DNA from: Lentisphaerae bacterium RIFOXYA12_64_32
Lineage (GTDB): Bacteria; Verrucomicrobiota; Lentisphaeria; Oligosphaerales; YB12-FULL-65-16
Assembly (NCBI GenBank): GCA_001803235.1
Contig: MHBL01000006.1
Coordinates: 1-57,306 of the forward strand
Reading direction: 5' to 3'
DNA length: 57,306 nucleotides
A model generated the notes under the pieces. It was not told the origin of the DNA, did not search any database, and worked only from the letters and a program-made list of their open reading frames with translations. This document shows, piece after piece, positions 18,147 to 54,618 of the stretch. Numbering within the stretch: position 1 is the stretch's first letter; each line of letters starts with the position of its first letter. The translations under genes were made by a program, and so were the position numbers.

Positions 18147-18273
18147 CGCGCGGTGGCTCGGCGCGTCTCGCGTCGAAGCGGGGTAGGTTACGCCGGCCGG
18201 TCTCCGGCCGAGGGCCTCGGGCCGAGACGGCCCCGAGTACTCTGCTGCGGTCCCGGAGGTCCCGCGCCACTGC
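18147..18273 (+). repeat. GCAGTGGC element, copy A (127 bp)
   Basis: First of four copies. Left end CGGTGGCTCGGCGCGTC, right end TCCCGGAGGTCCCGCGCCAC then TGC. The interior is palindromic (CGGCCGAGGGCCTCGGGCCG). It occupies the spacer between hicA and the beta-helix gene, whose coding ends converge. Confidence 0.85.
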
Positions 18274-18331
18274 TGCCGCTGCGTGACAACCTGGACACGC
18301 GTATCGAGATGCCTATTGCATGTGGCCACCC

Positions 18332-21199
18332 TCACTCCAGCGTCACGGTGCCGGCCTTGTCGAGTTCCCAGGTTGAGCCGGAGCCGAACCACTGGATCCA
18401 CTCGGCGGTGTCGGTGCGGCGCAGGCCGAGGTTGAACCCGAGCTTCAGGCCGGGCCGGTACTCGATGCCGGCAGCGGTGAGCGGGATGGCCCACTCGCCG
18501 GTCCAGTCCTTCTCGTTGATGCGCGCAGCGAACCGGACAGCCGCACCCAGCTTGGCTGCGGACTCCGCAGGCGCGCCGGCGTCGCTGACACTGAAGCACT
18601 TGCCGCTCGGGTAGCCCTGGACCACGAACGTCGGGCCCGGCGGTGCGGACTGCGCATTCCGGACGCAGACTTCCGCACCATCGCTTTCGGTCCATTTCTC
18701 GCCCGGTACGATCTTCGCGGCAGTCGACACGGGCACGGTCAGTGCCACGTACAGGTAAGCGCCGTCGTGCCCGAACCGCATCGTGCACGGTGCTCCGGCA
18801 ATGGGCGTGCCGCCGGGTGTCTGGTTCAGCGTCAGGGTCTTTTCCGGCCACTCGTTCGCGGCGAGCGTGCCGTCGACGGTGACTGGAGCGGCCAAACGCG
18901 GTACCGTGGCTTGGGGCGCGGTCCGCGGCGGTGGTGGCGCGGGCCAGGGAATGGGCGCGGGCGACTCGGACGTGAACGGTTTCTCCCGCGCGCCGGGCGC
19001 TTCGACGATCGGCCACGACGCACGCAGCGGGTGCGCGTACGGGCCGATCTTCTCGACCGGGATCGGCTGGAACCCGAGCGGCAGCGCGGGCGAGTCGGGC
19101 TTCAGCCGGTAGTCGTCCTTGTCCGGGTCGACGAACAGCGGGTCGGCGATGACCGAGTGCACATCGCTGCCCTGTTTCTGCCACTCCTCCCACTGCTTTT
19201 CAGGCGCGATTCCGGGCAGGTTGACGCGCAGCGGTGCGTCGCTGTGCCAGATCAGGTTGTAGTCGCACTCGTTCTTGTCCGGCAGGTAGTTGTTGGCCAC
19301 GTAGAGGCTCGACTGCGGATCGCGGTAGCAGATGATGTTGCGCACGAACCGGTTGCCGCCCATGGGCCCGTCCGTCTCGGGGTTGAGCGCTGCGAATTTC
19401 GCATAGTGTTTGCGGTATACCTCGCTGTCCTTGTACGCCTGGTACTTGTCGCGCATCTGGGGTTCGAGCGTGTTCGGCGGCTTGGACCCGGACCAGGTCA
19501 TCTGCTGCTTGCCGCAGTCGACGAAGATGTTGTTCTCGATCGTGTGGTCGCGGCCGCCGTGAATGTGCGAACCGCCCAGGACGGTGCGTGCGACGATGTT
19601 TCCGTACACGGTCGCCTCGCAGATGGCGTCGTCCAGGTAGATGCCCCAGGAGTAGCGTGGACACTCCCACTTGCCCTCGTTGCGGCCGAACCCGAGGATG
19701 TCGGAGAGGAAGTTGTGGCGGATGACGAGGCCGCGGCGCATCCAGCCTTCCTGGCCGGCGCAGACGTAGATGCCGCCGGTGTCTTCGGTGTCGAGATTGG
19801 CGTGGCGGATGCGGTTGAACTCGATGACGTTGTCGTTGCCGCCGCCGAAGATGCCGCAACGCGCGGTGTCGTGGATGAGGTTGTGCGCCACGCGGTTGCC
19901 GACACCGCCGACACCCATGCCGCAGCCGTGTCCATTGATCAATCCGGTGTGGTGGATGTAGTTGTTCTCCGCGCAGTGCCCCGCCGGGGTCAGGGTTTTC
20001 GTGTCACCGCCAGAGACTTGGAGGCCGTAGTTGCCGACGTCGTAAATGTCGTTGCCGAAGGCGACGTTGGCCGTGCCGTTCCGGATCTCGATGCCAGCGC
20101 TCCAATCGCTGCGGCCGCCAATGTTGCGGATCGTGCAGGCGACGACCTGGCAGTCACTGGCGTCGCGCAAAGCCACGCCCGAGCCTTCGCAGCACTCGAT
20201 GGCAAAACCGCGTATGGACGTGTACTCGGTCTTGTCGAGGGCGATCACGTTCTCGGTGAGCGGGGCGCGGACAGTGGCGCCGGCAATGTCACCGGGACCC
20301 TCGGGCGGCCAGAAGTACAGCGTCCAGGTGCGGTGGTCGAGGTACCACTCGCCGGGCGCGTCGAGTTCCTCGAACAGGCCGCGGACATAGTAGCGGTCGA
20401 ACGGGCGCATCTCGTAGCGCGCGTCCTGCGCCAGGGTGACGACGCGTTTCTCGCGGTCAAAGGCGGCGATGGGAACAATGCTGTTGCCCCAGTTGTAACG
20501 CGGGTAGATGTTGACCTCGCCGTCCTCCGGGTGCGCCCAGGCGCGGAGGTCGTCGGCGCGCACGAGGAGGTCGCGTTTCGTCTCCTGTTCGGGCGGGGGC
20601 TTCTGGTACATGGAGAACGGTTTGCCGTCGGAGAATGCCCAGCCGCCGGTGCGCGGCCGCGCCGGGTCGGTGTTCGGGTAGCGCGCCGGCGTCTGGCGCT
20701 CGCCGTTCAGGTACAGTTGCCGGAACCGCACGCCCTTGAATCCCTGCGCGGCCACATCGGCCTGCAGGATGTTGTCCTTGAATGGCTTGAAATCCGTGAT
20801 GCGCTTGCCGCCGAACAGCACGGGCTTCTCGCCCGGGAAGGCGCGGTACACGATTGGCGCGGCCGCGGTTCCCGAGTCCTCCGCCGTAAGCTGGAACGGC
20901 TTGGTCAGTTCGTACTCGCCGGCACGTACGAGCAGGGCGGCGCCGTCGGTGACTCCACCCGTCCTGCGGCGCTGGCGGAGTTCGTCCCGGGCGCGCTCGA
21001 GGGTGGCGAACGGGCCGTCGGTGCGGCCGGCGTTTGGCTCGGCGAGCGTGCCGGTCCAGGCATCGTTGCCGGCCGGTGCGACGTAGAGCACCAGCGCCGG
21101 CAGTTTGTCGGTGTCGGCGGGTTGAGACAACGTGTTTTGGGCGCGGGTTGTGGCGCAGGCACAGGCCAGGGTCAGCACGCAGGCCATGGGGAGTCGCAT
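18332..21199 (-). CDS. Secreted parallel beta-helix protein with C-terminal CBM9-like domain
   Basis: Protein of 955 aa with a signal peptide (MRLPMACVLTLACACATTRAQ). Residues 35-110 carry the YVAPAGNDAWTGT..GPFATLERARDEL pattern that opens many pectate-lyase-like helices. Repeated short Asn/Ile-rich coils follow to about residue 690 (ENNYIHHTGL, NRVAHNLIHDT, NVIEFNRIRHA), indicating a right-handed beta-helix. After a Pro-rich linker (about 725-740) residues 745-955 resemble a CBM9-type sugar-binding domain (VTVDGTLAANEWPE). It may be a polysaccharide lyase or glycosidase; catalytic residues cannot be assigned. Confidence 0.8.
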   Translation of the reverse strand: MRLPMACVLTLACACATTRAQNTLSQPADTDKLPALVLYVAPAGNDAWTGTLAEPNAGRTDGPFATLERARDELRQRRRTGGVTDGAALLVRAGEYELTKPFQLTAEDSGTAAAPIVYRAFPGEKPVLFGGKRITDFKPFKDNILQADVAAQGFKGVRFRQLYLNGERQTPARYPNTDPARPRTGGWAFSDGKPFSMYQKPPPEQETKRDLLVRADDLRAWAHPEDGEVNIYPRYNWGNSIVPIAAFDREKRVVTLAQDARYEMRPFDRYYVRGLFEELDAPGEWYLDHRTWTLYFWPPEGPGDIAGATVRAPLTENVIALDKTEYTSIRGFAIECCEGSGVALRDASDCQVVACTIRNIGGRSDWSAGIEIRNGTANVAFGNDIYDVGNYGLQVSGGDTKTLTPAGHCAENNYIHHTGLINGHGCGMGVGGVGNRVAHNLIHDTARCGIFGGGNDNVIEFNRIRHANLDTEDTGGIYVCAGQEGWMRRGLVIRHNFLSDILGFGRNEGKWECPRYSWGIYLDDAICEATVYGNIVARTVLGGSHIHGGRDHTIENNIFVDCGKQQMTWSGSKPPNTLEPQMRDKYQAYKDSEVYRKHYAKFAALNPETDGPMGGNRFVRNIICYRDPQSSLYVANNYLPDKNECDYNLIWHSDAPLRVNLPGIAPEKQWEEWQKQGSDVHSVIADPLFVDPDKDDYRLKPDSPALPLGFQPIPVEKIGPYAHPLRASWPIVEAPGAREKPFTSESPAPIPWPAPPPPRTAPQATVPRLAAPVTVDGTLAANEWPEKTLTLNQTPGGTPIAGAPCTMRFGHDGAYLYVALTVPVSTAAKIVPGEKWTESDGAEVCVRNAQSAPPGPTFVVQGYPSGKCFSVSDAGAPAESAAKLGAAVRFAARINEKDWTGEWAIPLTAAGIEYRPGLKLGFNLGLRRTDTAEWIQWFGSGSTWELDKAGTVTLE

Positions 21200-21239
21200 G
21201 ATTGGGTGTCCTTTCGGGGAATCGTACTTGCGCTCGTAC

Positions 21240-21330
21240 TCCCATGAAACTCGAACCCGGACCGCGTGAACGCGGTACTACAAGCCTCGTTGCGCTGTTG
21301 GCCAGGTTCGTAGTACCGCCTTCAGGCGGT
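21240..21330. repeat. fragment of a GTAGTACCGCC / GCGGTACTAC repeat
   Basis: GTGAACGCGGTACTACAAG and, about 45 bp on, GTAGTACCGCCTTCAGGCGG form an inverted pair around the shared GGTACTAC core. A related GTGAACGCGGAACTACGAAC occurs near 54690. It probably belongs to a dispersed noncoding family. Confidence 0.5.
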
Positions 21331-21477
21331 CTTGGTGCATCGTCGCCAGTTTCACTCCGAGATGACCGGGCGGTCTGCCGCCCGGGGGTGCTGACGCATC
21401 ACCATTCCGTCTTCCACGCCCAGCCTGCAACCCTTGCCAGGCCGGGCGACCTGGCGACCACCTCAGCCGCGACCCAG

Positions 21478-22245
21478 TCACAGCGTGGCCAGCACCGAGC
21501 GTTCGATGTCCGCGAGCACGGCGACCCAGAACCGGGCGGCGTGGATCAGGACTTGCGGGCTGGGCCCGATGGCGCCGCGCCGCACGCCGCCGGTGCGTTC
21601 CATCTGGTCGAGCACGCGTTCCAGGCTCCACTGGGGTTTGCCCTCGGGCGGGCGCTGGTGCAGCCGGATCCGGACCGTACGCACGCCCTCGGGGGCGACG
21701 ACCTGGCAGTCGACCCAGTCGGTGAGGCGCCAGGGGATGAGCATTTCCTCCGGGCCGTGCTTCATGGTGCAGGTGTGGATGGGCGCGCCGAGCATCAGGA
21801 CGTAGCCGCCGTGCTGGGCGATGCGGCCCCAGGCCCCGTCCGGACCGATCGGTGAACGCGCGCGTTCGTGGTCCCGGATCAGTTCGTCGGCGAGCGGGCC
21901 GATGGCCGCGATCGAATGCGTCGGGTGCAGGCTGCGCTTCGCTTCCGGCCGTTGTCGGAACGTTTCCGGGATGTGGCCGACGATGCAGGGCCGCGTCTTC
22001 GGGTCGAACAGCGGCGGCGGGTTTTCCGGCGCAAACGGCCCGTAGGTCAGGGTCGGTACCGCCACGGTCCCGCCCGGCGACACGGCGTCCAGGAGCGCAT
22101 CGATGACCGCATCGGCGCCGCCCTCGACGCGGCCGAAACTCTTCAGCGAACTGTGGACTATGACGAGGTCGCCGCTGCGCAGGCCCAAGTCACGGAGCCC
22201 GGCGCAGATCGCGGTCCGCGTGAGAACCGGTTTGTCGTCGTGCAT
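21478..22245 (-). CDS. AAC(3)-family N-acetyltransferase
   Basis: Protein of 255 aa with the conserved opening IVHSSLKSFGRVEGGADAVI, the SLHPTHSIAAIG motif and a C-terminal GAIGPSPQVLIHA. The family transfers acetyl from acetyl-CoA to an amine. Resistance enzymes acetylate the 3-amino group of aminoglycosides, but many PVC and environmental members act elsewhere, for example on amino sugars. The location in a glycan region, opposite a uronate-type dehydrogenase, makes a sugar substrate equally likely. Confidence 0.75.
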   Translation of the reverse strand: MHDDKPVLTRTAICAGLRDLGLRSGDLVIVHSSLKSFGRVEGGADAVIDALLDAVSPGGTVAVPTLTYGPFAPENPPPLFDPKTRPCIVGHIPETFRQRPEAKRSLHPTHSIAAIGPLADELIRDHERARSPIGPDGAWGRIAQHGGYVLMLGAPIHTCTMKHGPEEMLIPWRLTDWVDCQVVAPEGVRTVRIRLHQRPPEGKPQWSLERVLDQMERTGGVRRGAIGPSPQVLIHAARFWVAVLADIERSVLATL

Positions 22246-22344
22246 GGCGTGTTGCCCTCATCTACCGACGGGAAGCGGCGTTGTGGCACGCGCTGGGAAG
22301 ATATGCCAAGCGCGCTCGGAACGCAAGCGGTGGGGCGCGGTGAA

Positions 22345-22500
22345 CAGGGCTGTTTCAAGATCTGGCGCCGCGTCTCGGAAGGCCACACCTCCGCGCACAC
22401 CTGGTAGGGGCGGCCTGTCCTCAGGCCGCCCCCCCCCGGCGTGGGGACACGCCGGGGGTACTCGCGGCCCGCGACGGTCACGAATCTTGAAACAGCCCTG
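22345..22500. mobile_element. 156-bp MITE-like element with perfect 17-bp inverted ends
   Basis: The left end CAGGGCTGTTTCAAGAT (22345-22361) is exactly complementary to the right end at 22484-22500. Inside are two perfect hairpins: 22409-22430 (GGCGGCCTG / CAGGCCGCC) and 22433-22458 (CCCCCGGCGTG / CACGCCGGGGG). There is no coding capacity. It sits in the divergent promoter region between the acetyltransferase and the SDR genes, so it may affect both. Confidence 0.75.
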
Positions 22501-22607
22501 GCCCGCGGCGGGTCTCGCTTGATATTTGGTCGTTCCAAAAGGATATTGCGTACTCGGCTGTTGACTGGCAGGGGCTTTGCGTGCTTCGAGCAATGGAGGA
22601 TTAACCC

Positions 22608-23465
22608 ATGGCAGTACCGTTCAAGATCGATCTGACGGGCAAGGTGGCGGTAGTCACTGGCGGCGGCGGGATCCTGTGCAGTGTGATGGCGCAGGCACTG
22701 GGCGAGTGCGGGGCGAAAGTCGCGGTGCTCGACCTGCGCGCCGACGCGGCGGAGAAGGCGGCCGACACGGTGCGGGCGGTGGGCGGCACGGCCATGGGCG
22801 TGGCGTGCAATGTGCTCGAGCGGCCGAGCCTCGAGGGGGCGCTGGCGACGATCAAGGCGAAGTTCGGCCCGTGCGACATTCTCATCAACGGCGCCGGCGG
22901 CAACCATCCCAAGGGCACGACCAGCAAGGAATACCTCTTTAAGGAGGATCTGAAGGGGCCGGTGGAGGGAGTGACCACGTTCTTTGACCTCGACCCGAAG
23001 GGGATCGAGTTCGTGTTCGGCCTGAACTTCCTCGGCACGCTCGTGCCGACACAGGTGTTTACGCGCGACATGGCTGTCAACGGCAAGGGCGTGGTGATCA
23101 ATATCTCGTCCATGAACGCGTTCACGCCGCTGACGAAGATCCCGGCGTACAGCGCGGCCAAGGCCGCGGTGAGCAATTTCACGCAGTGGCTGGCGGTGCA
23201 CCTCTCGAAGGTCGGCGTGCGCGTGAACGCGATCGCGCCGGGGTTCTTCCTGACCGACCAGAACCGCAGCCTGTTGACCAAGCCGGACGGCAGCATGACG
23301 CCGCGCGGCAAGACGATCATCGACCACACGCCGATGACCCGGTACGGCCAACCCGCTGACCTGGTCGGACCACTGCTGTGGCTGGTGAGCGACAGCGGAG
23401 CCGGGTTCGTGACCGGCACGGTCATCCCGGTGGACGGCGGCTTCAGCGCCTTCAGCGGCGTGTGA
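22608..23465 (+). CDS. SDR oxidoreductase, D-mannonate-oxidoreductase-like
   Basis: Protein of 285 aa with GGAGGATTAACCC before the ATG. Classical SDR motifs are present: TGGGGIL cofactor loop (residues 17-23), NGAGGN, NISSMN and YSAAK (Tyr181, Lys185). The loop NHPKGTTSKEYLFKEDLKG and the ending VIPVDGGFSAFSGV match SDR-type mannonate (fructuronate) reductases, which interconvert D-fructuronate and D-mannonate in hexuronate catabolism. This assignment is from memory of the family. It would fit breakdown of uronate-containing glycans. Confidence 0.78.
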   Translation: MAVPFKIDLTGKVAVVTGGGGILCSVMAQALGECGAKVAVLDLRADAAEKAADTVRAVGGTAMGVACNVLERPSLEGALATIKAKFGPCDILINGAGGNHPKGTTSKEYLFKEDLKGPVEGVTTFFDLDPKGIEFVFGLNFLGTLVPTQVFTRDMAVNGKGVVINISSMNAFTPLTKIPAYSAAKAAVSNFTQWLAVHLSKVGVRVNAIAPGFFLTDQNRSLLTKPDGSMTPRGKTIIDHTPMTRYGQPADLVGPLLWLVSDSGAGFVTGTVIPVDGGFSAFSGV

Positions 23466-23472
23466 CACGGCG

Positions 23473-23627
23473 GCGGGGACTCTGTCCCCGCACCCCTGCC
23501 GGGAAGGACCATTGGCCCTTCCCGGACCCATCCCAATGATCATTCGCGGATTTGCCCCGGCGGTCGCCGGGGCAAATCCGCGAATGAAGCGGCCATCCAG
23601 CGCTCGCGCCTCCGCGAGCGCTGGATG
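23473..23627. repeat. Cluster of four perfect hairpins
   Basis: The four hairpins are 23473-23491 (8-bp stem GCGGGGAC), 23499-23525 (9-bp stem CCGGGAAGG), 23540-23587 (22-bp stem around ATTCGCGGATTTGCCCCGGC, loop GGTC) and 23594-23627 (15-bp stem CATCCAGCGCTCGCG, loop CCTC). They follow the SDR stop. The first may terminate transcription; the last two are too long and perfect for ordinary terminators. Confidence 0.85.
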
Positions 23628-23778
23628 AGGGGATGAGGCGGCCCTGCAACGTTCTTCGGGGCGACAGGGCTCCCGGAACGCTTCGGGTCTGTTTGTGGAG
23701 CCGGCTTTGCTCAGTGACGAGATGCTTTGGATTCGGAAGGGGCAAGATCGTTCTACACACCGTTCTCCTGCCCCCCCC

Positions 23779-23799
23779 CGAACCCTGAACCCCGAACCC
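23779..23799 (-). repeat. Heptamer array (CGAACCC/TGAACCC), 3 units
   Basis: Units CGAACCC, TGAACCC and CGAACCC follow a C9 run, 45 bp upstream of the membrane-protein start. Same heptamer family as at 16.8 kb, opposite strand. Confidence 0.7.
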
Positions 23800-23843
23800 C
23801 GAGTACTGAGTCCCCATCACAACCCCGCGGAGGAAACGGTGTA

Positions 23844-25865
23844 ATGCGTGCAGTCATTCTGGGTCTGCTGGGTGCGAGTTTCATCTGCGGTTTTACCTAC
23901 TTCAACGACTGCGTTCTGCACCAGAGCCTGCTGATCAGCGACCACATGCCGGTGGTGATCTACGGCGGGCTGATCCTGTTCGTGGGCCTGCTCAATCCGC
24001 TGCTCCGGCGGCTGCGCCCGAGTTGGGCGCTGTCGCCGCGCGAGTTGGCGGTGACTCTGGCTCTGGTCCTGGCCTCCTGCACCGTGCCGGCGTTCGGGCT
24101 GATGCGCACCTTCACCGCATCGCTGATGCTGCCGCACTACCACACGCTGAAGGAACCGTCCTGGCGCGAGAACAAGGTCGTTGGCATGGTTCCGGACAAG
24201 ATGCTGGCCGACATCAGCGGCGACGAGAACGAGAAGCTGACCACGTTCATCCAGGGCGGCGCCACCGGCAACCAGCACATCGCGTTCCGTCAGATCCCGT
24301 GGTCGGCGTGGAGCCGGACGCTGGTGTTCTGGCTGCCGCTGATCGTGGCGCTGTGGTTCACCTGCATCGCGTTGGCGGTCGTGGTGCATCCGCAGTGGGC
24401 GAATCACGAGCAGTTACCGTACCCGATTGCGAAGTTCGCCGACTCGTTGCTGAGCCCCGGCGACGGGGAGGGGGGCGGACGCATCATCACCAACAAGCTG
24501 TTCCTCGGCGCCTGTGGGTTCGTGTGCTTTATCTACTCGTGGAACTACCTGTGCGGGTGGTTCCCGCAACTGGTGCCGGTCAACATGCAGCTCAAGTTCT
24601 GGCCGCTCGGCCAACTCGTGCCGACCTTCATGGACGGCGGCGGCGGGCGCTTGCTCTCGATCACGATCCGATTCATGCCGATCGGGTTTGCGTACTTCCT
24701 CGCCAACGACGTGGCCTTCTCGCTCGGGATCGGGCCGTACCTGTGGTGCTTCATCGTCGGCATGTTCATGAAGTACGGCATCTCGCTGGAGGGCGGCGAC
24801 TACATGTCGCTGAAGACGTCGATCTTCATCAACTTCGGCGCCTACTTCGGTTTCTTCATCGCCATCCTGTTCTGGGGCAGGCATTACTACAAGAGCGTGT
24901 TCCGCAAGGCCATTGGGCTGAAGGATACCGAGAGCATCGAACCGCAGTACGTGTGGGCGGCGCGCTGTGCCATGGTCGGAGCGTTGCTGTTCACCTTCTT
25001 CGTCTGGAATTCCGGGCTCGACCTGCCGCTGGCGGTGCTCTACTCGGGCGGCGCCCTGATCATTTTCGTGGTCGTCGGCCGCATCACCGCCGAGACGGGG
25101 CTGTTCTTCCTCCAGGTCTGGACGTTCCCGTGCGTCGTGCTCTGGGGGTTGCTCGGACCCCAGGCGCTGGGGCCCGACACGCTCGCCGTGCTGTGTCTGA
25201 TCAGTTGCGTCATCCTGCTTGACCCGCGCGAGGCGCTCATGCCGTACATGGTCAACTCGATCAAGCTGCTCGACCTGCACCGGGCCCGGATCGGCCGCAC
25301 TGCCGCGCTCTGCGCCGTGTCAGTCCTGCTCGGGTTGCTGATCGCCGTGCCGGTGACGCTCTACTTCCAGTACGACCGCGGTCTGTTCACCATTGATGGG
25401 TGGACGCAGTTGGCGTCGGGGTTCCCGTTCCAGAATGCGGTGAAGATCAAGCGCGATCTGATGCTGACCGGCGATCTGGACAAGGCGCAGTCGCTGTCCG
25501 GGTGGGCGCGCTTCGCGAATGCGCGGCCGCAGAGCCGGTGCGTGATCGGGTTGCTGGCGGGCGTGGTTGTCGTGCTGCTGTTCTCGGTGGCGCGGGTGCG
25601 GTTCTCCTGGTGGCCTTTGCACCCGGTGATGTTTCTCGTCTGGGGTACCTACCCCATGTGGCGGTTCGGGCCGTGTTTCCTGTTCGGCTGGCTCGTCAAG
25701 GTGGTGGTGGTCAAGTACGGCGGCGCGAGGCTGTATCGCCAGCTCACTCCGCTCATGCTGGGGTTGATCGCGGGCGAGATTCTCGGGTACCTGGTCAGTA
25801 TCGTGGCAGGGCTCGGTTACTGGGCCGTGACCGGCGAACTGCCACGGTTCTCGTTCTGGCGGTAA
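23844..25865 (+). CDS. Polytopic membrane protein of the DUF6785/DUF6784 type
   Basis: Protein of 673 aa from the ATG at 23844 with GCGGAGGAAAC upstream. About twelve or more hydrophobic helices span the length, starting ILGLLGASFICGFTYFNDCVL and ending with LVSIVAGLGYWAVTG. Conserved-looking loops include NHEQLPYPIAKFADSLL and GRITAETGLFFLQVWTFP. It resembles the large PVC and Armatimonadetes family carrying paired DUF6785/DUF6784 domains, topologically similar to oligopeptide-type transporters. Substrate transport is inferred, not shown. It is followed at once by the TPR-like gene. Confidence 0.7.
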   Translation: MRAVILGLLGASFICGFTYFNDCVLHQSLLISDHMPVVIYGGLILFVGLLNPLLRRLRPSWALSPRELAVTLALVLASCTVPAFGLMRTFTASLMLPHYHTLKEPSWRENKVVGMVPDKMLADISGDENEKLTTFIQGGATGNQHIAFRQIPWSAWSRTLVFWLPLIVALWFTCIALAVVVHPQWANHEQLPYPIAKFADSLLSPGDGEGGGRIITNKLFLGACGFVCFIYSWNYLCGWFPQLVPVNMQLKFWPLGQLVPTFMDGGGGRLLSITIRFMPIGFAYFLANDVAFSLGIGPYLWCFIVGMFMKYGISLEGGDYMSLKTSIFINFGAYFGFFIAILFWGRHYYKSVFRKAIGLKDTESIEPQYVWAARCAMVGALLFTFFVWNSGLDLPLAVLYSGGALIIFVVVGRITAETGLFFLQVWTFPCVVLWGLLGPQALGPDTLAVLCLISCVILLDPREALMPYMVNSIKLLDLHRARIGRTAALCAVSVLLGLLIAVPVTLYFQYDRGLFTIDGWTQLASGFPFQNAVKIKRDLMLTGDLDKAQSLSGWARFANARPQSRCVIGLLAGVVVVLLFSVARVRFSWWPLHPVMFLVWGTYPMWRFGPCFLFGWLVKVVVVKYGGARLYRQLTPLMLGLIAGEILGYLVSIVAGLGYWAVTGELPRFSFWR

Positions 25866-25866
25866 T

Positions 25867-26516: not shown

Positions 26517-26704
26517 GAACTACGAAAGGCGCGAACGGCCGCGAAAAGGGGGCAATGGCCGGGGCGTTGCGGCGGTCTGGCCTGGGGATGGTGTCTTGCC
26601 CGGCGGACAACCGCCGGGACTGCGACACCACTACGAGCGGCGCCGTGGCCGGATTTACCCGCACAGGTCGATTGTTTTCGTGTCTTTCGCGTGTTTCGTA
26701 GTTG
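26517..26704. mobile_element. 188-bp element with imperfect 30-bp inverted ends
   Basis: The left end begins GAACTACGAAAGGCGCGAA. The right end, read on the minus strand, begins CAACTACGAAACACGCGAAA. Between them is a hairpin at 26591-26626 (GTGTC..CCCGGCGG-ACAA-CCGCCGGG..GACAC). It has no ORF and fills the spacer between the convergent ends of the TPR gene and the glycosidase-like gene. A solo end occurs at 6414-6449. Confidence 0.7.
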
Positions 26705-29478: not shown

Positions 29479-29600
29479 CGCGCAGTGGCTCGGCGCGTCC
29501 CGCACCGAAGCGGCGTGCGCCGGCCGGTCTCCGGCCGCGGACCTCGGTCCGGGACGGACCCGAGGACCCTGCTGCGGTCCCGGAGGTCCCGCGCCACTGC
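29479..29600 (+). repeat. GCAGTGGC element, copy B (122 bp)
   Basis: Ends GCAGTGGCTCGGCGCGTCCC and GGTCCCGCGCCACTGC. It lies between the PIG-L gene and the glycosidase-like gene, in the leader of the latter. The interior differs at several paired positions that keep base pairing (CGGACCTCGGTCCG). Confidence 0.85.
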
Positions 29601-38170: not shown

Positions 38171-38784
38171 CGGCGCGAGCCGGTCAGTAACCCGCAGGGT
38201 ATGATCGGGCGGTCCCCGCCCGGGGGACGCTGACGCATTACGGCAACCTTCATCTCGGGGATTGCCAACCGCCCTCCGGCGCGCTACAGTGTCGCACCTG
38301 CGGGTGCGGGATCCGCACTCGCCCAGATAAGGGTGTAACGGCACGGGGGTTCGTTACAGGCGCTCTGGGTGGTCGGGCCGCCATCCGAACCTGATGGTAT
38401 TGGCGTCTCGACAGGAGGACTGCGCATGAACTTACCTCTCCGGGACAGGGCGTAGTGATACGCGCCGCCGTGTGTCCCTACGCTTCCGCGTTCGTGGATT
38501 CTCATTCGTGACGACGCATGGCGGACGCGACAGGCTGGCCGTTGGGGGGGGGCGCGGGATGACCAGGGCCAGGCGTCGATCGGTCCGGGGCTCTGGCTCT
38601 TCGGTCCCGATTTGTGTGACCCCTTGTCTCCCGTCAGCCCAATCCCTCCGGGATGCCTTGGTGCGGCGTCTGGGGTCCGTCCTGCCGTTCGGCGGTGTGG
38701 GCGGACTCCGAGGGTGGCGGGCTGGCTTTGGGATCGAGGTCGTTCATCCGGTGAAACGCTCGTGCGGGAAAGGTGCCGCAGGTG

Positions 38785-45377: not shown

Positions 45378-45420
45378 AGCGTCTTCCCCCCGCCCCCATC
45401 ACTCTCCCCGGTGGCAGTCG

Positions 45421-47426: not shown

Positions 47427-47548
47427 CGCGCAGTGGCTCGGCGCGTCCCGCGCCGAAGCGGGGTACTCGGGCCGGTCCCCGGCCGAGAACCGCGGGCCGG
47501 GACGGCCCGCGGCACTCCACTGCGGTCCCGGAGGTCCCGCGCCACTGC
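47427..47548 (+). repeat. GCAGTGGC element, copy C (122 bp)
   Basis: Ends GCAGTGGCTCGGCGCGTCCC and GGTCCCGCGCCACTGC. The interior stem is GCGGGCCGGGACGGCCCGC. It lies in the leader between the ClC gene and the NAD kinase gene, which diverge. Confidence 0.88.
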
Positions 47549-47625
47549 CGCTCGGCGCACTGCCCGCCGCGGTGAACCACTACGAACGCGCGTATCATGG
47601 CGCCCATTGCTCCGCCTTCTCTCTG

Positions 47626-47759
47626 GAGGCGCTTGCAAAACCCTTGCAAGCGCCAGGAACCAGGGTTCAGGGTGTCAGGGTTCAGGCAGGAAACTCTCTC
47701 ACTGAACCCCGAACCCTGAACCCTCCGCTTACACAAACCGGAGGTTTTGCAAGCGCCTC
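47626..47759. mobile_element. 134-bp element with TTGCAAGCGCC ends and inverted heptamer arrays
   Basis: Perfect 17-bp inverted ends (GAGGCGCTTGCAAAACC at 47626-47642 and its complement at 47743-47759). The left end also folds on itself (GGCGCTTGCAA / TTGCAAGCGCC). Inside, GGGTTCA-type heptamers (47663-47687) face CGAACCC/TGAACCC heptamers (47702-47723), making a nested hairpin. A second copy lies at 51513-51668. Confidence 0.82.
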
Positions 47760-47875
47760 TCTGTAGATTCACCCACACATGCCGATTGTTTTTCCCGCTG
47801 CCGGTGATTATCATACGTCATGGTGTTCCGGGAGTGTTGTTCGGAGAAGAATCGCTGGAGGCATCGGAAAACCGA

Positions 47876-48655: not shown

Positions 48656-48768
48656 CGTTAGGCGGTAGGTAGATAGGCTGTAGGCAAGAATCACGCCTGA
48701 GACCAAGGACCCGTCCCCTCGACCCCCGACACTCATCCTGTGCCGTGGAAGAAAGAGCAACATTTACC

Positions 48769-49449
48769 ATGATGTGTGCGGCGGTATTGCTGGGCGGTTA
48801 CCTGCTGGGCAGCATTCCCTGGGCCCTTATCATCGGCTGGCTCAACCGGATTGACATCCGGCAGCACGGCAGCGGCAATATCGGCGCCACGAACGTGCGG
48901 CGCGTGCTGGGCAAGAAGTGGGGCATTCTGTGCTTTGTGCTGGACTGCGCCAAGGGCTTGGCGCCGGTCGTGGCGGCCGTGGTCTTGGTGCACCGCAGGC
49001 CGGAGGTGTGGCCCGGGTGGCTGCCGGCGGCCATGGCGGGCGCCGCGGTCGCCGGGCACGTGTGGCCCGTGTGGCTGCGCTTCAAGGGCGGCAAGGGCGT
49101 GGCGACCACGATCGGCGCCCTGGCGGCCTTGGCCCCGATCGCAGTCCTTGTGGCCGTGCTGGGCTGGTTGGCGGTGTTCTACTCCACGCGCTACGTGTCG
49201 CTGGCCAGCGTCGTGGCGGCGGTCTTGTTCCCGGTCAGCGCGGGGGTTCAGCGAGCGGTCACGGGCGGCAGCCCGAACACCGCCACCCTGGCACTGCTCG
49301 TCCTGCTGGCGACGACCATCGTGGTCCGGCACAGAACCAACATCCGGAAATTGCTGGACGGCACGGAACACAAGTTTGAGAAGAAAAACACGGACGCGGC
49401 CGCCGTCGCGGCGGCCGGTGAGAAGGCCGAGGGAGCGGAGAAACCATGA
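48769..49449 (+). CDS. plsY: Acyl-phosphate:glycerol-3-phosphate acyltransferase
   Basis: Protein of 226 aa from the ATG at 48769 (a GTG at 48745 is an alternative). Multi-spanning membrane enzyme making lysophosphatidic acid from acyl-phosphate. The three conserved PlsY loops are visible: LGSIPWALIIG, HGSGNIGATNVRRVLGK and FKGGKGVATTIGALA. The C-terminus has an extra hydrophilic Ala/Glu-rich tail of about 25 residues. Its stop overlaps the gpsA start (ATGA), linking acylation to supply of glycerol-3-phosphate. Confidence 0.93.
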   Translation: MMCAAVLLGGYLLGSIPWALIIGWLNRIDIRQHGSGNIGATNVRRVLGKKWGILCFVLDCAKGLAPVVAAVVLVHRRPEVWPGWLPAAMAGAAVAGHVWPVWLRFKGGKGVATTIGALAALAPIAVLVAVLGWLAVFYSTRYVSLASVVAAVLFPVSAGVQRAVTGGSPNTATLALLVLLATTIVVRHRTNIRKLLDGTEHKFEKKNTDAAAVAAAGEKAEGAEKP

Positions 49450-50444
49450 AAATCGGTGTCCTCAGTGATGGCGCCTGGGGCACGGCCCTGGCCATTACGC
49501 TGGTGCAGAATGGGCACGACGTCGTGCAGTGGGGACCATTCCCCGATTACCTGCTCGAGATGCGCGAGCGACGCGAGAATGTGCGGTACCTGCCTGGCCC
49601 CAAGCTGCCCGCCGCGCTGCGGCAGGAGCCGGACTTGGCTGCGGCCGTGCAGGGCGCTGAACTCCTCGTGCTGGCGCTGCCGGCACAGTACCTGCGCGGA
49701 CTTCTCGCGCGCCTGGACGCGCTCAATCTGCCCGCCAGCGTGACCTACTTGAACGTGGCCAAAGGCATCGAGGTGGGTTCGCTCAAGCGCATGGGCGAAC
49801 TGGTGGAGGAACTCCTCGGACCCGTGCGTTATGCGGTCCTGTCCGGACCGAGTCACGCCGAGGAAGTGGCGCGGGGTATCCCGACCGCTGTGGTGGCGGC
49901 CGCCCGGGAGTCGGGGCTGGCCGAGCAACTCCAGCAGACGTTCATGAACCCGCAGTTTCGTGTCTATACCTCGGACGATGTGATCGGAGTCGAGTTGGGC
50001 GGCGCCCTGAAGAACGTCTACGCCCTGGCTGCCGGCGTCTGCGACGGGATGGCTTTTGGCGACAACGCCAAGGCGGCGCTCATGACGCGCGGCATCGCGG
50101 AGATGGCAAGGCTCGGTCAGGAACTCGGCGGCCGCCCCGAAACGTTCAGCGGGCTCAGCGGCATTGGCGACCTGATTGTGACCTGCATCAGCCGCCACAG
50201 CCGCAACCGGCACGTGGGGCAGGAATTGGGCCGCGGCCTGACGCTGGACGCGATTCAGGCCGGCATGGGCGGCAAGGTGGCGGAAGGCGTGCCGACCACG
50301 AAGAGTGCGTTTGACCTGGCACGTCGCCGCAACATCGAGACGCCGATCATTGACCAAGTCCATGCGGCCCTGTACCAGGATAAGGACCCGCGGCAGGCGG
50401 TCACGGAACTGATGACGCGCGACGCCAAGCCGGAGAGAGGGTGA
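49446..50444 (+). CDS. gpsA: Glycerol-3-phosphate dehydrogenase [NAD(P)+]
   Basis: Protein of 332 aa reducing dihydroxyacetone phosphate to sn-glycerol-3-phosphate for lipid synthesis. The nucleotide-binding loop reads VLSDGAWGTALA, so the first Gly of the usual GAGSWG is replaced by Ser-Asp. The catalytic Lys lies in LGGALKNVYALAAG, and SGPSHAEEVARG and GLSGIGDLIVTC are conserved. It overlaps plsY by 4 nt and forms the lipid operon with it. Confidence 0.93.
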   Translation: MKIGVLSDGAWGTALAITLVQNGHDVVQWGPFPDYLLEMRERRENVRYLPGPKLPAALRQEPDLAAAVQGAELLVLALPAQYLRGLLARLDALNLPASVTYLNVAKGIEVGSLKRMGELVEELLGPVRYAVLSGPSHAEEVARGIPTAVVAAARESGLAEQLQQTFMNPQFRVYTSDDVIGVELGGALKNVYALAAGVCDGMAFGDNAKAALMTRGIAEMARLGQELGGRPETFSGLSGIGDLIVTCISRHSRNRHVGQELGRGLTLDAIQAGMGGKVAEGVPTTKSAFDLARRRNIETPIIDQVHAALYQDKDPRQAVTELMTRDAKPERG

Positions 50445-50467
50445 CGGGTGTCGAGTGTCGGGGGAGG

Positions 50468-50530
50468 GAATGCGGCTTTCGATGGCAATCGATAGCCGTC
50501 GACTGCAGTCGATCGCGGCCGATTGCAGCA
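50468..50530. repeat. TCGATxGC palindromic repeat
   Basis: GGCTTTCGATGGCAATCGAT is followed by GTCGACTGCAGTCGATCG, several overlapping palindromes between gpsA and the YdjY-like gene. Similar to the hairpin near 45339-45385. Confidence 0.55.
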
Positions 50531-50602
50531 CTTCCCTCCTGTCACCCGACACTCGTCCCCGTGGATCGCGGTGAGGGATTAGGCGAACAAAGGAGGCGGA
50601 CG

Positions 50603-51367
50603 ATGAGACCGATACTGCTGGTGACAGTGGCAGCACTTCTTGTCTTTCTCAGTGAGCGAGCCCTGGCCCAGGCTCCTGCGCCTGCGCCCGCCGCGGCGCC
50701 GGCCACGGCAAACGCTCCGGCCCCCGCAGACGCGGCCACCGCGCCGCCGGCAGCCCCGGCCCAAGCTGCGGCCCCGGTGGACTTCGAGCGTCTCCCCAAC
50801 GGCGACGTGCGCCTGGGCGGTATTACGCTGCACCGCGCCACCGGCGAGATCTCCTTCCCGGCGGTCCTGAACCTGCAATCCGGCGTCATCGAGGTCATCG
50901 TGTCGTTGCCCGACGGGCGGTTGCACGAGAGCCTGTTGAAGACCGAGGTCAAAGCCCTGCATCTCCAGACGTTGCTTCTGCTGGCCAACCTGAAGAACGG
51001 ACCGCGTATCCGGGACGAGAACGGGAACCAGGGTGACATCGGGGACCTCGACCTGGAATGGAAGGACAAGGACGGCAAGGCCGTGCGGGAACCGATCGAG
51101 GAATGGATCGTGGATACGCACACCGGCAAGCCGATGACACGCTACGGTTGGGCGTTCGTGGGGTCCGCCGTGGTGGACGGAATCTTCCAAGCTGATGCCG
51201 CATGTAATCTGGTGATCAATTATTCGGTCGCCGACACGGTCCTCGACATTGCCGACAAGTCAGGCGAAGACGACACGCTGTACGTGGGGAACGACCAGAA
51301 GACGGTGCCGGGCAAGGACGCCCCGGTGCGAGTCATCATCACGCCACGGCAACGGCAGAAGCAATAG
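50603..51367 (+). CDS. Exported YdjY-domain protein
   Basis: Protein of 254 aa with AAAGGAGG before the ATG and a signal peptide ending ALAQ. A low-complexity Ala/Pro tract (residues 23-58) separates the signal from the folded part. The latter carries the YdjY-like run FPAVLNLQSGVIEVIVSLPD, then HLQTLLLLANL and YGWAFVGSAVVDGIFQADA, a set seen in many Planctomycetes and Lentisphaerae. Molecular function is unknown. It stands between lipid and cell-wall genes on the same strand. Confidence 0.75.
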   Translation: MRPILLVTVAALLVFLSERALAQAPAPAPAAAPATANAPAPADAATAPPAAPAQAAAPVDFERLPNGDVRLGGITLHRATGEISFPAVLNLQSGVIEVIVSLPDGRLHESLLKTEVKALHLQTLLLLANLKNGPRIRDENGNQGDIGDLDLEWKDKDGKAVREPIEEWIVDTHTGKPMTRYGWAFVGSAVVDGIFQADAACNLVINYSVADTVLDIADKSGEDDTLYVGNDQKTVPGKDAPVRVIITPRQRQKQ

Positions 51368-51369
51368 GA

Positions 51370-51685
51370 AGGCTGTAGGTGGATAGACTGTACGCTGTAG
51401 GTTAAGAGCAATACGCGACCCCGCGGTCCGCGGAGTCCTTCAGGTGACCGGCGGTGCGGCAGACCTGCCTGGCCGAATGAATCGTATTCGAGCCAACGGT
51501 CTATAGCTAAACGAGGCGCTTGCAGAACCCCTGCAAGCGCCGGTTTCAGGTTTCAGTGTTCAGGTTTCAGGAATGCGTAACTGCGTGCGGTTGAGCGAGA
51601 TATTTTCCGACACCCGAAACCTGACACCTGAACACTCCGCATGTAAAACAGGGTTTTGCAAGCGGCTGTAAACAACCTACAGCCT
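51370..51685. repeat. Nested composite repeat between ydjY-like gene and murA
   Basis: An outer 11-bp inverted pair (AGGCTGTAGGT at 51370-51380, complement at 51675-51685) encloses the second TTGCAAGCGCC element (51513-51668) with its heptamers. CTGTAGG-type repeats also occur near 48665. It fills almost the whole 357-bp spacer. Confidence 0.75.
51513..51668. mobile_element. 156-bp TTGCAAGCGCC element, copy 2
   Basis: Left end GAGGCGCTTGCAGAACCC, right end GGGTTTTGCAAGCGGCTG (imperfect inverted pair). The left end also folds (GGCGCTTGCAG / CTGCAAGCGCC). Heptamers GGTTTCA (51542-51571) face CCCGAAA/CCTGACA units (51613-51633). Same design as 47626-47759 but with diverged interior. Confidence 0.82.
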
Positions 51686-51724
51686 GATTAACCCGCTCGA
51701 CGGCGCGATACGAAAGAAACAACC

Positions 51725-53023
51725 ATGACCATGCTCGAGATCCAGGGGGGGAAACCGCTGTGCGGAGAACTGACGGCAGCCGGAAACAAGAACGCCGTGC
51801 TGCCCATGATCGCGGCCTCGCTGTTGACCGACGAACCGGTGCAACTCGAGAACGCGCCCGCCATTGGTGACGTCCTGACCATGCTGCGGTTGGCCGAAGC
51901 ACTTGGCGTGCGCGCCTCGCACGACACGGCATCCGCAACCCTGACCCTGCACGCGGCGGATATCCGTGCCGACGTCATGCCGCCGGCCTTGTGCCGAACC
52001 GTGCGTGCCGGAATCCTGTTTGCCGCACCCATGCTGCACCGCCTCGGCCGGGTGACCATGTCGCCGCCGGGCGGCGACGTGATCGGTCGCCGCCGCCTCG
52101 ACACGCATTTTCTAGGTCTTGAGGCGCTCGGGGCGGAAATTCTCGCGGGTGAGGTGTTTCTGTTTCGAGCCCCCCGTGGGCTCAAGGGCGCGGATATCTT
52201 CCTGCCCGAGGCCAGCGTCACCGGCACGGCACAGGTTCTGATGGCCGCGGTGCTGGCGAAAGGCACTACAATTATCCGCAACGCCGCCGCCGAGCCGCAC
52301 ATCGAAGACCTGTGCGTGCTGCTCCGGGAAATGGGCGCGCAGATCGATGGCCTCGGCACCAACACGCTCACCGTGCACGGTGTCGAGCGCTTGCATGGGA
52401 CGCGGCACCGGGTCAGTTCCGACTACACCGAGGTCGGCAGTTTCCTGGCGCTCGCCGCGGCAACCGGCGGCGCGATCACCGTCCGCAATGTGGACCCGAC
52501 GCACTACCGTCTGATCACGCGTGTGTTCGAGCGCCTGGGCGTGGAACTTGAGTTCAATGGCGACGCTGTGAGCGTCCCCGCACTCCAGGAACTGCGGGTC
52601 AGGGCGGATATCGGCGGTGGCATTCCGGTGATCGACACCGGCATCTGGCCGCAATTCCCTTCCGACCTGCTCAGCGTCATGATCGTGCTCGCCACCCAGG
52701 CGAAGGGCACCGTACTGTTCTTCGAGAAACTGTACGAGAGCCGCCTGTACTTTGTCGACCGTCTCATCGTCATGGGCGCTAACGGCGTGATCTGTGACCC
52801 GCATCGCGTTGTGATTTCCGGACCGTCAAAACTGCACGGCATCGAGATGAACAGCCCGGACATCCGCGCCGGTATCGCCCTGGTCGGCGCCGCGCTCTGC
52901 GCCCAAGGCCGAAGCGTCATCCGCAATATCCGGTTCGTCGACCGCGGTTACGAACGCATCGAGGACAAGCTGCGCGCGCTCGGCGCCGACGTGCAGCGCG
53001 TTCCAGACACCAACCCGGGGTGA
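51725..53023 (+). CDS. murA: UDP-N-acetylglucosamine 1-carboxyvinyltransferase with active-site Asp
   Basis: Protein of 432 aa for the first committed step of peptidoglycan synthesis. Lys22-Asn23 in AGNKNAVLP and Arg94 region RTVRAGILF are present. The catalytic loop reads PPGGDVIGRRRLD, with Asp118 at the place of E. coli Cys115. Enzymes with this change (Mycobacterium, Chlamydia, Borrelia) are active and resist fosfomycin. No strong ribosome site is seen before the tandem ATGs (51725 and 51731). Full length and otherwise intact. Confidence 0.93.
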   Translation: MTMLEIQGGKPLCGELTAAGNKNAVLPMIAASLLTDEPVQLENAPAIGDVLTMLRLAEALGVRASHDTASATLTLHAADIRADVMPPALCRTVRAGILFAAPMLHRLGRVTMSPPGGDVIGRRRLDTHFLGLEALGAEILAGEVFLFRAPRGLKGADIFLPEASVTGTAQVLMAAVLAKGTTIIRNAAAEPHIEDLCVLLREMGAQIDGLGTNTLTVHGVERLHGTRHRVSSDYTEVGSFLALAAATGGAITVRNVDPTHYRLITRVFERLGVELEFNGDAVSVPALQELRVRADIGGGIPVIDTGIWPQFPSDLLSVMIVLATQAKGTVLFFEKLYESRLYFVDRLIVMGANGVICDPHRVVISGPSKLHGIEMNSPDIRAGIALVGAALCAQGRSVIRNIRFVDRGYERIEDKLRALGADVQRVPDTNPG

Positions 53024-53040
53024 GCGGGCAGCACCGCGAG

Positions 53041-53203
53041 AGGTTTCAGGTTTCGGGGGGTTGACACCTCCGGGCTCCGAACCGACACCGCGAATCTCTC
53101 GATTCCATCGGTTTCATCGAGATCTTCGGGATCATCGATATCTTCGCGACGGCCGGCACCTGAAACCTGAAACCTGAAACCTGAAACCTGACACCTGGGA
53201 CCT
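53041..53203. repeat. Inverted heptamer arrays upstream of the (alpha/alpha)6 gene
   Basis: GGTTTCA-type units at 53042-53055 face six units at 53159-53200 (four CCTGAAA, then CCTGACA, CCTGGGA). The right array ends 11 bp before the next start codon and takes the place of a normal ribosome site. Confidence 0.8.
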
Positions 53204-53213
53204 CTCTTCCCCC

Positions 53214-54434
53214 ATGCCCCTGAGCCACGACGAACTCAAGACCGCCCTGCGCCTGGCGTGCGACTGGCTGGTTGACGTCGCACAGGTGGCGACGCGCGAA
53301 CTGACGGTCGAGAAGAACAGCATGCGCCACCCGTACTCCGACTGGCGCGGCGCGATCCGCGGCGAGTACAGCGCCGCCACGCGCCAGTGGGACTTCTTCT
53401 GCCCTGTCTGGCACACCGGCCAAGCCGTGAAAGCACTGCTCGGCGCGGCACAGTCGCTGAACGAACCGCGGTACCGACAGGCGGCAGACGCCGGCGCCGC
53501 GTTCATCCTCGACAAACAGGTGTGGGACACAACGTCGCCGGACCACGGACTCATCCTCGCGTTCGAGGACTCGGCCGAGTTCGTCAACACGTCCGCCGTG
53601 CTCGAGTGCATGGACGGACTGCTCCGCCTCGCCGACGCGAACCGCGCGCCGGACGTGCAGCAGCGGCTGGTGCGGGCGGGCGAGTTCCTCATCGAGAAAC
53701 TGTACATGCCCGACGCGGGGCTGTTCCACGACGCGTATCACCCCGGCCGTCACGCAGTCGTCCTGCCCAACCCGTTCCGGACTCGGGAGAACGTGGGCGG
53801 CCGGCCGTTGCTTGACGACAGCATCTTTCTGAAGCTGTACCGGCAGACGGGCGAGACGCGGTTCCGCGACGTTCAGGTCCGAGTTTCCGAGACGCTCGTC
53901 CAAACCCAGCGGCCGCGTGGCAACTGGGTCGACTACGCGCCCTGCAACCCGGACCGGATGCGGTTCCACCCACGCCACACCTACTGGTGGGGCCTGCCAC
54001 TGCTTGACACGTACCGCGAGACCGGGCGAGGCGAATTTCTCGAAACGGCCGTGGCGGCCGGCGAGTTCACGCTGCGTGCTCTGCGCAGCGACGGTGGCTA
54101 CTTCCGCGAGGTCAGCGTCGAACCGGACGGGACCGTCAACACCGCCTCGTTCGGGCACGCGACGTCCGGCGCCGCCTGTGGCGCACTGCTGTTCTTGGCG
54201 CTGCACCGTGAGACCGGCGACGCGCGCTGGCTCGAGGGCGCCGAGCGCGCCCTCTCATTCTGCCTCAGCATGCAGATGCGGACTCCGCAGGACCCGAACC
54301 TGAAAGGCGTGATCATCGAGAAAGTCCTGCCCCCGCGCGGCACCGATGCCAGCCCCTATCACGTCCGCGACCTCGGTACCATCTTTTTCATCCAGGCCGC
54401 GGTGGCGTACCTGGGAACGCCCGGCCGCAGGTGA
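53214..54434 (+). CDS. (alpha/alpha)6-barrel protein, glycosidase- or epimerase-like
   Basis: Protein of 406 aa. Repeated helix pairs with WHTGQAVKALLGAAQ, FEDSAEFVNTSAVLECMDGL, DSIFLKLYRQTGETRFRDVQ and FGHATSGAACGALLFLAL suggest an alpha/alpha toroid as in AGE epimerases, GH88/GH105 or glucuronyl C5-epimerases. The family is not certain. No signal peptide and no clear ribosome site: the heptamer array abuts the start. Cytoplasmic sugar modification is plausible. Confidence 0.65.
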   Translation: MPLSHDELKTALRLACDWLVDVAQVATRELTVEKNSMRHPYSDWRGAIRGEYSAATRQWDFFCPVWHTGQAVKALLGAAQSLNEPRYRQAADAGAAFILDKQVWDTTSPDHGLILAFEDSAEFVNTSAVLECMDGLLRLADANRAPDVQQRLVRAGEFLIEKLYMPDAGLFHDAYHPGRHAVVLPNPFRTRENVGGRPLLDDSIFLKLYRQTGETRFRDVQVRVSETLVQTQRPRGNWVDYAPCNPDRMRFHPRHTYWWGLPLLDTYRETGRGEFLETAVAAGEFTLRALRSDGGYFREVSVEPDGTVNTASFGHATSGAACGALLFLALHRETGDARWLEGAERALSFCLSMQMRTPQDPNLKGVIIEKVLPPRGTDASPYHVRDLGTIFFIQAAVAYLGTPGRR

Positions 54435-54463
54435 GGGGGCATGCCGACCCTGCGGAGTTACGG

Positions 54464-54618
54464 CCGCAGTGGCTCGGCGCGTCCCGCGCCGAAGCAAGGT
54501 GCGCCGGCCGGCTCTGTCCGGCGAAGCTGCTCGCGCGAAGACGGATCCCCGGCCGAGGGCCTCGGGCCGGGACGGCCCCGAGCACCCTGCTGCCGTCCCG
54601 GAGGTCCCGCGCCACTGC
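54464..54618 (+). repeat. GCAGTGGC element, copy D (155 bp)
   Basis: Same ends as copies A-C. About 33 bp longer owing to an extra segment (CTGTCCGGCGAAGCTGCTCG region) within the central palindrome. Confidence 0.85.

What the first reader, a model, noticed from the sequence alone, without database searches (positions are those of the whole stretch)
18147..54618. Four-copy dispersed GC-rich element with GCAGTGGC/GCCACTGC ends
Copies at 18147-18273, 29479-29600, 47427-47548 and 54464-54618 share both ends and a central palindrome whose sequence varies while the pairing appears kept. All four lie in spacers and in the same orientation. No transposase is in the window. This looks like a family of non-autonomous elements or a conserved structured RNA. 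Compensatory changes in the centre (GGGCCTCGGGCC, GACCTCGGTC, CGCGGGCCGGGACGGCCCGC) argue for selection on structure or for independent copies of a folding unit.
Basis: partly seen in the sequence, partly recalled or inferred. Interest (0 to 1): 0.75.

Follow-up and report, generated by a model that had tools for sequence, protein, structure and literature searches.

The report
Mobile hairpin repeats inside transposons
The four repeats belong to a family of several hundred paired-hairpin DNA elements in this bacterial genome that are likely spread by a small single-strand-cutting enzyme whose gene sits among them, and many copies also lie in the middle of a second kind of transposon-like element, so two likely unrelated copying systems appear to share one piece of DNA.

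Summary
In detail: four copies of a 118-152 nt palindromic module (A). Genome-wide, 376 places match its 24-nt right end (control 0).

Module A is best read as a REPIN, a pair of inverted, tagged hairpins of a REP-associated tyrosine transposase (RAYT). One RAYT gene on another contig has module A copies on both sides. Several RAYT orthologues in related families have GTGG/GTAG-tagged hairpins beside them; one has the right-hand REP of module A at 22 of 24 bases. Stem changes are compensatory.

The surprise lies outside the given coordinates. About half of the copies tested sit in, or keep arms of, a MITE of 212-327 bp with 18-20 bp terminal inverted repeats and 8-bp target duplications (19 of 57 match at 7 or 8 of 8; shuffled mean 0.75). 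The same kind of MITE also carries a second, GTAG-tagged REPIN-like module (B) and, rarely, a third insert. Between MITE copies the core differs about 5-fold less than the arms (type A; 2.4-fold in type B).

Movement by RAYT, and what keeps the core alike, are inferred. No transposase for the MITE was found. REPINs and MITEs are known; a MITE with interchangeable REPINs looks like a new variant.

The parts
18151..18273 (+). Module A copy 1 (REPIN-like), 5-nt internal insert, left tag CGGTGG
18096..18150 (+). Left MITE arm of copy 1, without its terminal repeat
   Evidence: alignment score 33.5 to the arm consensus; 30.5 against 53 arms, reached by 0 of 400 random flanks
18275..18337 (+). Decayed right MITE arm of copy 1
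   Evidence: score 20.0; 21.5 against 53 arms, reached by 4 of 400 random flanks
29483..29600 (+). Module A copy 2; no arm above background
   Evidence: arm scores 17.0 and 12.0, reached by 61 and 386 of 400 random flanks
47431..47548 (+). Module A copy 3; third hairpin re-paired throughout
47564..47624 (+). Right MITE arm of copy 3
   Evidence: score 43.0; 41.5 against 53 arms, reached by 2 of 400 random flanks
47766..47784 (+). Right terminal repeat of the MITE of copy 3, parted from its arm by another insert (47626-47759)
54467..54618 (+). Module A copy 4 with a 34-nt internal insert; no arm above background
   Evidence: arm scores 17.0 and 16.5, reached by 61 and 101 of 400 random flanks
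26585..26636 (-). Half of a module B (GTAG-tagged REP unit), read on the - strand; the other half is missing or decayed
26652..26670 (+). Terminal inverted repeat of the partial type B MITE, exact consensus

Best explanation
The four sequences are copies of one REPIN-like element, a pair of inverted, GTGG-tagged DNA hairpins, likely moved by a RAYT single-strand transposase encoded elsewhere in the same genome, and many copies of the family lie inside a MITE that has terminal inverted repeats and 8-bp target duplications. Shown: several hundred copies, a conserved tagged hairpin at each end with compensatory stem changes, spacer location, a RAYT gene with modules on both sides, RAYT orthologues with tagged hairpins beside them, and the MITE's repeats and target duplications. 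Inferred: the RAYT cuts the tagged hairpins when they are single-stranded (for example on the lagging strand) and pastes the module into other spacers without a target duplication. Inferred: a DDE-type transposase, not found in this assembly, moved the MITE, so a REPIN captured in it spread by a second route. Inferred: the core inside decaying MITEs stays alike through RAYT-linked replacement, gene conversion with free copies, or selection; the data do not choose.
For: Copies: 376 right ends at up to 3 mismatches, control 0. Ends and hairpins; 9 pairs with double changes v 4.6 shuffled, 95.1% of cells paired. RAYT L307:1174-1779 passes NCBIfam REP_Tyr_transpos (84.6 v cut-off 80) and matches solved TnpA-REP 4er8 (E 2.6e-5); four A modules lie in its 3.2 kb, nearest 75 nt before and 40 nt after the gene; in the other fetched DNA no 3.2-kb window starting at a module has more than three, and 4 of 6 tandem single units lie on this contig piece. 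RAYT orthologues: tagged hairpins 41 near v 7 far, 11 of 30 v 2 of 30 loci with two or more; L331 has the right REP at 22 of 24 bases. Free copies: 48 of 93 have no arm signal, end sharply and have no target duplication. MITE: 8-bp match 0.645 v 0.290 shuffled, z 12.4; 19 of 57 at 7 or 8 of 8, shuffled mean 0.75, maximum 3 in 500. 24 of 57 hold module A, 31 module B, 2 a third insert.
Against: Only one RAYT in this genome has a cluster of modules; two of 11 Y1 matches with a module within about 200 nt would not be significant alone (my estimate). The tagged-hairpin scan scored 0 for L331 and most orthologue loci (19 of 30) have fewer than two; short loci make its far count too low. Core identity and arm score fall together (Spearman 0.51), so some 'free' copies may be very old MITE copies; missing target duplications could also be decay. 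The whole module was found in no other genome (1 of 98, own only; 37 candidates scored per genome), and no same-family genome is held, so no empty site could be shown. The tag is GTGG, not GTAG. No transposase with the MITE's repeats was found in five families searched.
Confidence: 0.78

Rival explanations
1. Module A is simply the palindromic middle of the MITE. All copies were moved by the MITE's own transposase, the arms decayed, and the core is kept in place by host selection (for example as a protein-binding site or a hairpin at mRNA ends).
For: Every MITE of the 57 carries an insert, none shorter than 212 nt was seen without a lower limit of 60 nt or more. Core identity and arm score correlate. 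Cores differ far less than arms: 253 of 253 pairs. Modules lie a median 40 nt from stop codons.
Against: RAYT gene with clustered modules and tandem single units, none with detectable MITE ends; the right REP beside a RAYT orthologue of another family; two unrelated tagged modules in one chassis; 48 of 93 copies without arms or target duplication.
Confidence: 0.15
2. A conserved structured RNA, such as a 3'-end stabiliser or regulatory RNA, that happens to be repeated.
For: Covariation in the stems; position close to stop codons.
Against: No Rfam match on the modules; in tandem-gene spacers 40 of 56 copies run against the genes; tandem arrays and RAYT linkage.
Confidence: 0.05
3. Assembly or binning artefact: repeated contamination or duplicated contigs.
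For: 503 contigs, contamination estimate 4.78.
Against: Copies differ from one another, have different flanks on many contigs and distinct 8-bp duplications.
Confidence: 0.02

Closest known systems
REPINs with RAYTs (Bertels and Rainey 2011, PMC3116915; passages seen)
   Same: Two inverted REPs forming a hairpin, extragenic, hundreds of copies, clusters beside a RAYT gene, REP ends conserved with a variable spacer (clear in module B)
   Different: Each half of module A holds two hairpins; many copies lie inside a MITE with 8-bp target duplications
GTAG REP families and REPtrons (Di Nocera et al. 2013, PMC3733652; abstract, sections 5, 7 and 16 and passages seen)
   Same: Tag outside (their HH dimers); GTGG variants reported for O. 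terrae; GTAG-15 dimers of A. variabilis reported within long palindromes not found without them
   Different: There no target duplication or MITE reading in what I saw; here 8-bp duplications and two REPIN types in one chassis
Bacterial MITEs (listed in PMC3733652 background: RUP, NEMIS, ERIC, Nezha; passage seen)
   Same: Short, no gene, 15-30 bp terminal inverted repeats, target duplication
   Different: The middle is a REPIN that also occurs outside the MITE
E. coli TnpA-REP (PDB 4er8; PMC8266576 abstract seen)
   Same: HUH-type enzyme family; tagged palindromic single-strand substrate
   Different: Distant in sequence (E 2.6e-5); cutting not tested here

Membership tests
REPIN | Two inverted REP hairpins at the ends of one unit | tested here: met
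   module B two inverted tagged units (by eye)
REPIN | Extragenic, high copy number | tested here: met
   376 matches; 97 of 97 non-edge modules between gene calls, 14 of 111 at edges not scored
REPIN | REPs cluster at a RAYT gene | tested here: met
   L307; one locus only
REPIN | Excision or transposition by the RAYT | not testable with these tools
   needs bench work or long-read populations
GTAG REP superfamily | Terminal GTAG tag | tested here: inconclusive
   module A has GTGG (a variant reported for O. terrae); module B has GTAG
RAYT | NCBIfam REP_Tyr_transpos cut-off | tested here: met
   L307 84.6 v 80; L305 43.8 and L303 60.8 are below
RAYT | HUH motif and catalytic tyrosine | tested here: inconclusive
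   MPNHVHAL and a downstream Tyr (TYIRDNP) seen by eye in the translation; motif recalled
MITE | Terminal inverted repeats, short, no gene | tested here: met
   57 elements, 212-327 nt
MITE | Target-site duplication of fixed length | tested here: met
   8 bp, z 12.4; lengths 7 and 9 at the same trim z 5.6 and 4.3
MITE | Autonomous partner with the same ends | tested here: inconclusive
   PF00872 0, PF01610 1, PF12762 2, PF01609 6, PF03050 1 matches, no terminal repeat within 4 mismatches in those loci; other families not searched
Structured RNA family | Match to a described family | tested here: not met
Structured RNA family | Covarying stems | tested here: met
   does not tell RNA from single-stranded DNA
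Structured RNA family | Transcription | not testable with these tools
   no RNA data

The most novel reading that the evidence does not exclude
A two-engine mobile element: a DDE-type MITE works as a chassis with an exchangeable cassette slot for REPINs of different RAYT lineages, and the slot is refreshed by RAYT-driven replacement, so the passenger stays near-identical while the chassis around it decays.
Probability: 0.25. Interest if true: 0.8.

Novelty: new variant of a known kind. Interest (0 to 1): 0.55.

Why it matters
How REPs and REPINs spread is called poorly understood (PMC8266576 abstract) and a central but unresolved issue (PMC3116915 passage). A MITE whose 8-bp duplications were identical at insertion gives an internal clock around the REPIN inside it. 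Here the REPIN stays alike while its surroundings decay, so replacement, conversion and host selection can be tested against one another in one genome. It also suggests a second, unrelated route by which REPINs can multiply.

Tried and rejected
Known RNA: no Rfam match on the modules. Whole module or type B MITE in 97 other held genomes of the order and class: none, each 1 of 98, the own genome. These searches scored at most 37 and 8 candidates per genome, and one search missed the single REP later seen in G018 (L331), so they speak only of the whole unit. Plasmids by blastn none at E 1e-3.

Autonomous MITE partner: three wide repeat pairs (1714, 2126 and 3394 bp) hold no transposase that I could recognise by eye; five transposase families negative for the repeat. 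Kissing of GUCCC and GGGAC loops: compatible almost throughout but nearly invariant, so no evidence.

Labels were too loose (several type B elements tagged A); redone (A 23, B 31, 3 unscored: L128 and L292 with the third insert, L103 with module A on the other strand). The first arm test used one consensus arm (55 of 96 without arms); the test against 53 arms replaced it (48 of 93; three rows dropped by a left-hairpin filter meant to remove copies read on the wrong strand). A tree of 61 cores does not put the armed copies in one clade, but has few columns.

Full report
Observation. The four copies are present at 18151-18273, 29483-29600, 47431-47548 and 54467-54618. The 24-nt right end is identical in all four; 100 shuffles gave none. 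Copy 1 has CGGTGG in place of CAGTGG. Copy 4 carries a 34-nt insert. The own genome (10.64 Mb, 503 contigs) has 376 matches to the right end at up to 3 mismatches, 197 forward and 179 reverse, control 0. So the four belong to a family of several hundred, and their shared orientation is local.

Anatomy. In 44 aligned copies the module is a nest of inverted repeats: an outer GTGGC/GCCAC stem; a left hairpin TCGGCGC(GTCCC)GCGCCGA; a second stem; two inner hairpins that are inverted versions of each other; and a right hairpin GCGG...CCGC. On this named structure 95.1% of cells pair against 93.3% in shuffles, 9 pairs have changes on both sides against 4.6, and sliding the partners by 1-3 columns drops pairing to 33-49%. 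RNAalifold by itself preferred a different pairing of the centre and found 4 of 40 pairs with double changes and a near-zero covariation term. In 60 distinct cores one pair of the third hairpin is G-C 34, T-A 23, C-G 2. Pairing says nothing about RNA versus single-stranded DNA.

Longer element. Flanks of many copies continue into a common element with terminal inverted repeats CGACCTGTGCGGGTAAATC...GATTTACCCGCACAGGTCG; 218 such ends occur in the genome at up to 2 mismatches, control 0. I collected 57 pairs, 212-327 nt, from the fetched DNA. The 8 bp outside the repeats match their opposite number at 0.645 against 0.290 after shuffling partners, z 12.4; lengths 7 and 9 at the same trim give z 5.6 and 4.3. 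Eight of 57 are perfect and 19 of 57 match at 7 or 8 positions; shuffled mean 0.75, maximum 3 in 500. This is the mark of a DDE-type transposon (established knowledge); at this size, without a transposase gene, it is a MITE. By content 24 of 57 hold module A (one, L103, on the other strand), 31 module B and 2 a third insert; the 23 scored A give z 7.6 and the 31 B z 9.5. Module B has ends TTCGTAGTGG...CCACTACGAA and two inverted units, each with a GTAG tag and a hairpin (by eye). The third insert has a perfect hairpin of about 25 bp (L128; also L292; by eye). No empty MITE was seen: the shortest pair was 212 nt with a lower limit of 60 nt and 214 nt with none. Some A elements have right arms of the B kind (L297, L299; by eye), so arms and modules have recombined.

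REPIN and RAYT. Y1 transposase domains were sought in the own genome: 11 matches. One gene, L307:1174-1779, lies among four A modules in 3.2 kb, nearest 75 nt before and 40 nt after it, with further single left units in tandem. It passes the NCBIfam model for REP-associated tyrosine transposases (84.6 against 80; two other Y1 proteins tested, L305 and L303, are below it) and matches solved TnpA-REP, E 2.6e-5. In 1.86 Mb of other fetched DNA no 3.2-kb window starting at a module has more than three modules, and 4 of 6 tandem units are on this contig piece. L305 has a module about 190 nt before its Y1 gene and L303 a module B about 260 nt behind it; at this repeat density neither is significant alone. 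Orthologues of the L307 RAYT occur in 35 of 98 genomes, the own one included. In 30 loci (the own and 29 relatives) GTRG-tagged hairpins number 41 within 450 nt and 7 in more distant windows; 11 of 30 against 2 of 30 loci have at least two (short loci make the distant count too low). Four (L332, L340, L341, L342) share the apex CG(TCC)CG of the left hairpin of module A. L331, a 53%-identical RAYT from another family of the order, has the right REP of module A at 22 of 24 bases, twice before the gene and again behind it, where the contig ends; none of the other 28 relative loci has it within 5 mismatches. This is the strongest evidence that the ends of module A belong to this RAYT lineage.

Free and riding copies. 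Of 93 canonical-length copies, 48 show no similarity to any of 53 MITE arms above the 97.5th percentile of random flanks, 22 one arm, 23 both. The 48 end sharply at the tags and show no target duplication of 2-10 bp (z -1.9 to 1.6). In the window copy 1 keeps a left arm (0 of 400 random flanks as good) and a weak right arm (4 of 400), copy 3 a right arm (2 of 400) and right terminal repeat; copies 2 and 4 nothing above background. Against a simple reading, core identity and arm score fall together (Spearman 0.51), so part of the free set may be very old MITE copies; a tree of 61 cores mixes free and armed copies (14 label changes, 20 in shuffles).

Uneven decay. In 9 A elements of 255-272 nt the mean pairwise difference is 0.141 in terminal repeats, 0.176 in arms and 0.032 in the core; in all 23 it is 0.161, 0.285 and 0.058, arms above core in 253 of 253 pairs; in 31 B elements 0.133, 0.255 and 0.105, 458 of 465 pairs, with the two REP ends conserved and the spacer variable. 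If arms and core arrived together, the core has been kept alike afterwards or was replaced. Arms may also have diverged in the source elements before insertion; which applies is not decided here.

Context. With home-made gene calls, 97 of 97 A modules away from region edges lie between genes (14 of 111 at edges not scored), 22 of the 97 between convergent genes against 124 of 916 spacers of 60 nt or more; the median distance to a stop codon is 40 nt; in tandem-gene spacers 40 run against the genes and 16 with them. Of 68 B modules 53 are between genes, 2 inside gene calls, 13 at edges. REPs of other genomes also lie mostly downstream of genes (PMC3733652 abstract).

Known or new. REPINs, RAYTs and MITEs are known. 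The nearest precedent I found is a remark that GTAG-15 dimers of A. variabilis lie within long palindromes not found without them (PMC3733652 section 7); the phrase 'target site' does not occur in that paper's main text. Searches for REPIN with MITE and nested (0 papers), RAYT with target site duplication and miniature inverted-repeat, RAYT with miniature inverted (14 papers, listing only) and a looser one (22 papers, 20 listed) showed no report of REPINs carried in MITEs; the library lacks most subscription papers. I rate it a new variant of a known kind.

Noticed in passing
window 38331-38386 (+): nhaA-I RNA (RF03057), 45.5 bits against a gathering score of 37.
   Followed up: no
window 47626-47759: Another inverted-repeat insert (GAGGCGCTTGCAAAACC...GGTTTTGCAAGCGCCTC) splits the right MITE arm of copy 3, with TCTG on both sides; its middle holds GGGTTCAGG-type repeats also seen elsewhere in the genome.
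   Followed up: partly
L128:6488-6816 and L292: A third insert type with a perfect hairpin of about 25 bp, between the same or similar terminal repeats; 8-bp match 4 of 8 in L128 and 7 of 8 in L292.
   Followed up: partly
L300:1365-2034 and L301:1397-2018: Two other Y1 transposase genes of this genome lie between long inverted repeats (60 nt at 95%, 33 nt at 97%), like the 'TIRYT' genes described in PMC3733652 section 16.
   Followed up: no
L120:16131, L233:12780, L296:13050: Three copies of a further GTGG...CCAC repeat with its own flanks, related to the left hairpin of module A but not part of it.
   Followed up: no
target duplications of the MITEs (list): Many 8-bp duplications are runs of A/G or T/C, so the MITE may prefer purine/pyrimidine tracts; seen by eye, not tested.
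   Followed up: no
L330, L332, L335, L337, L340, L341, L342 (RAYT genes of unnamed relatives): RAYT orthologues each carry their own tagged hairpin sequence, several with the same TCC loop: a series for studying how RAYT and REP change together.
   Followed up: partly
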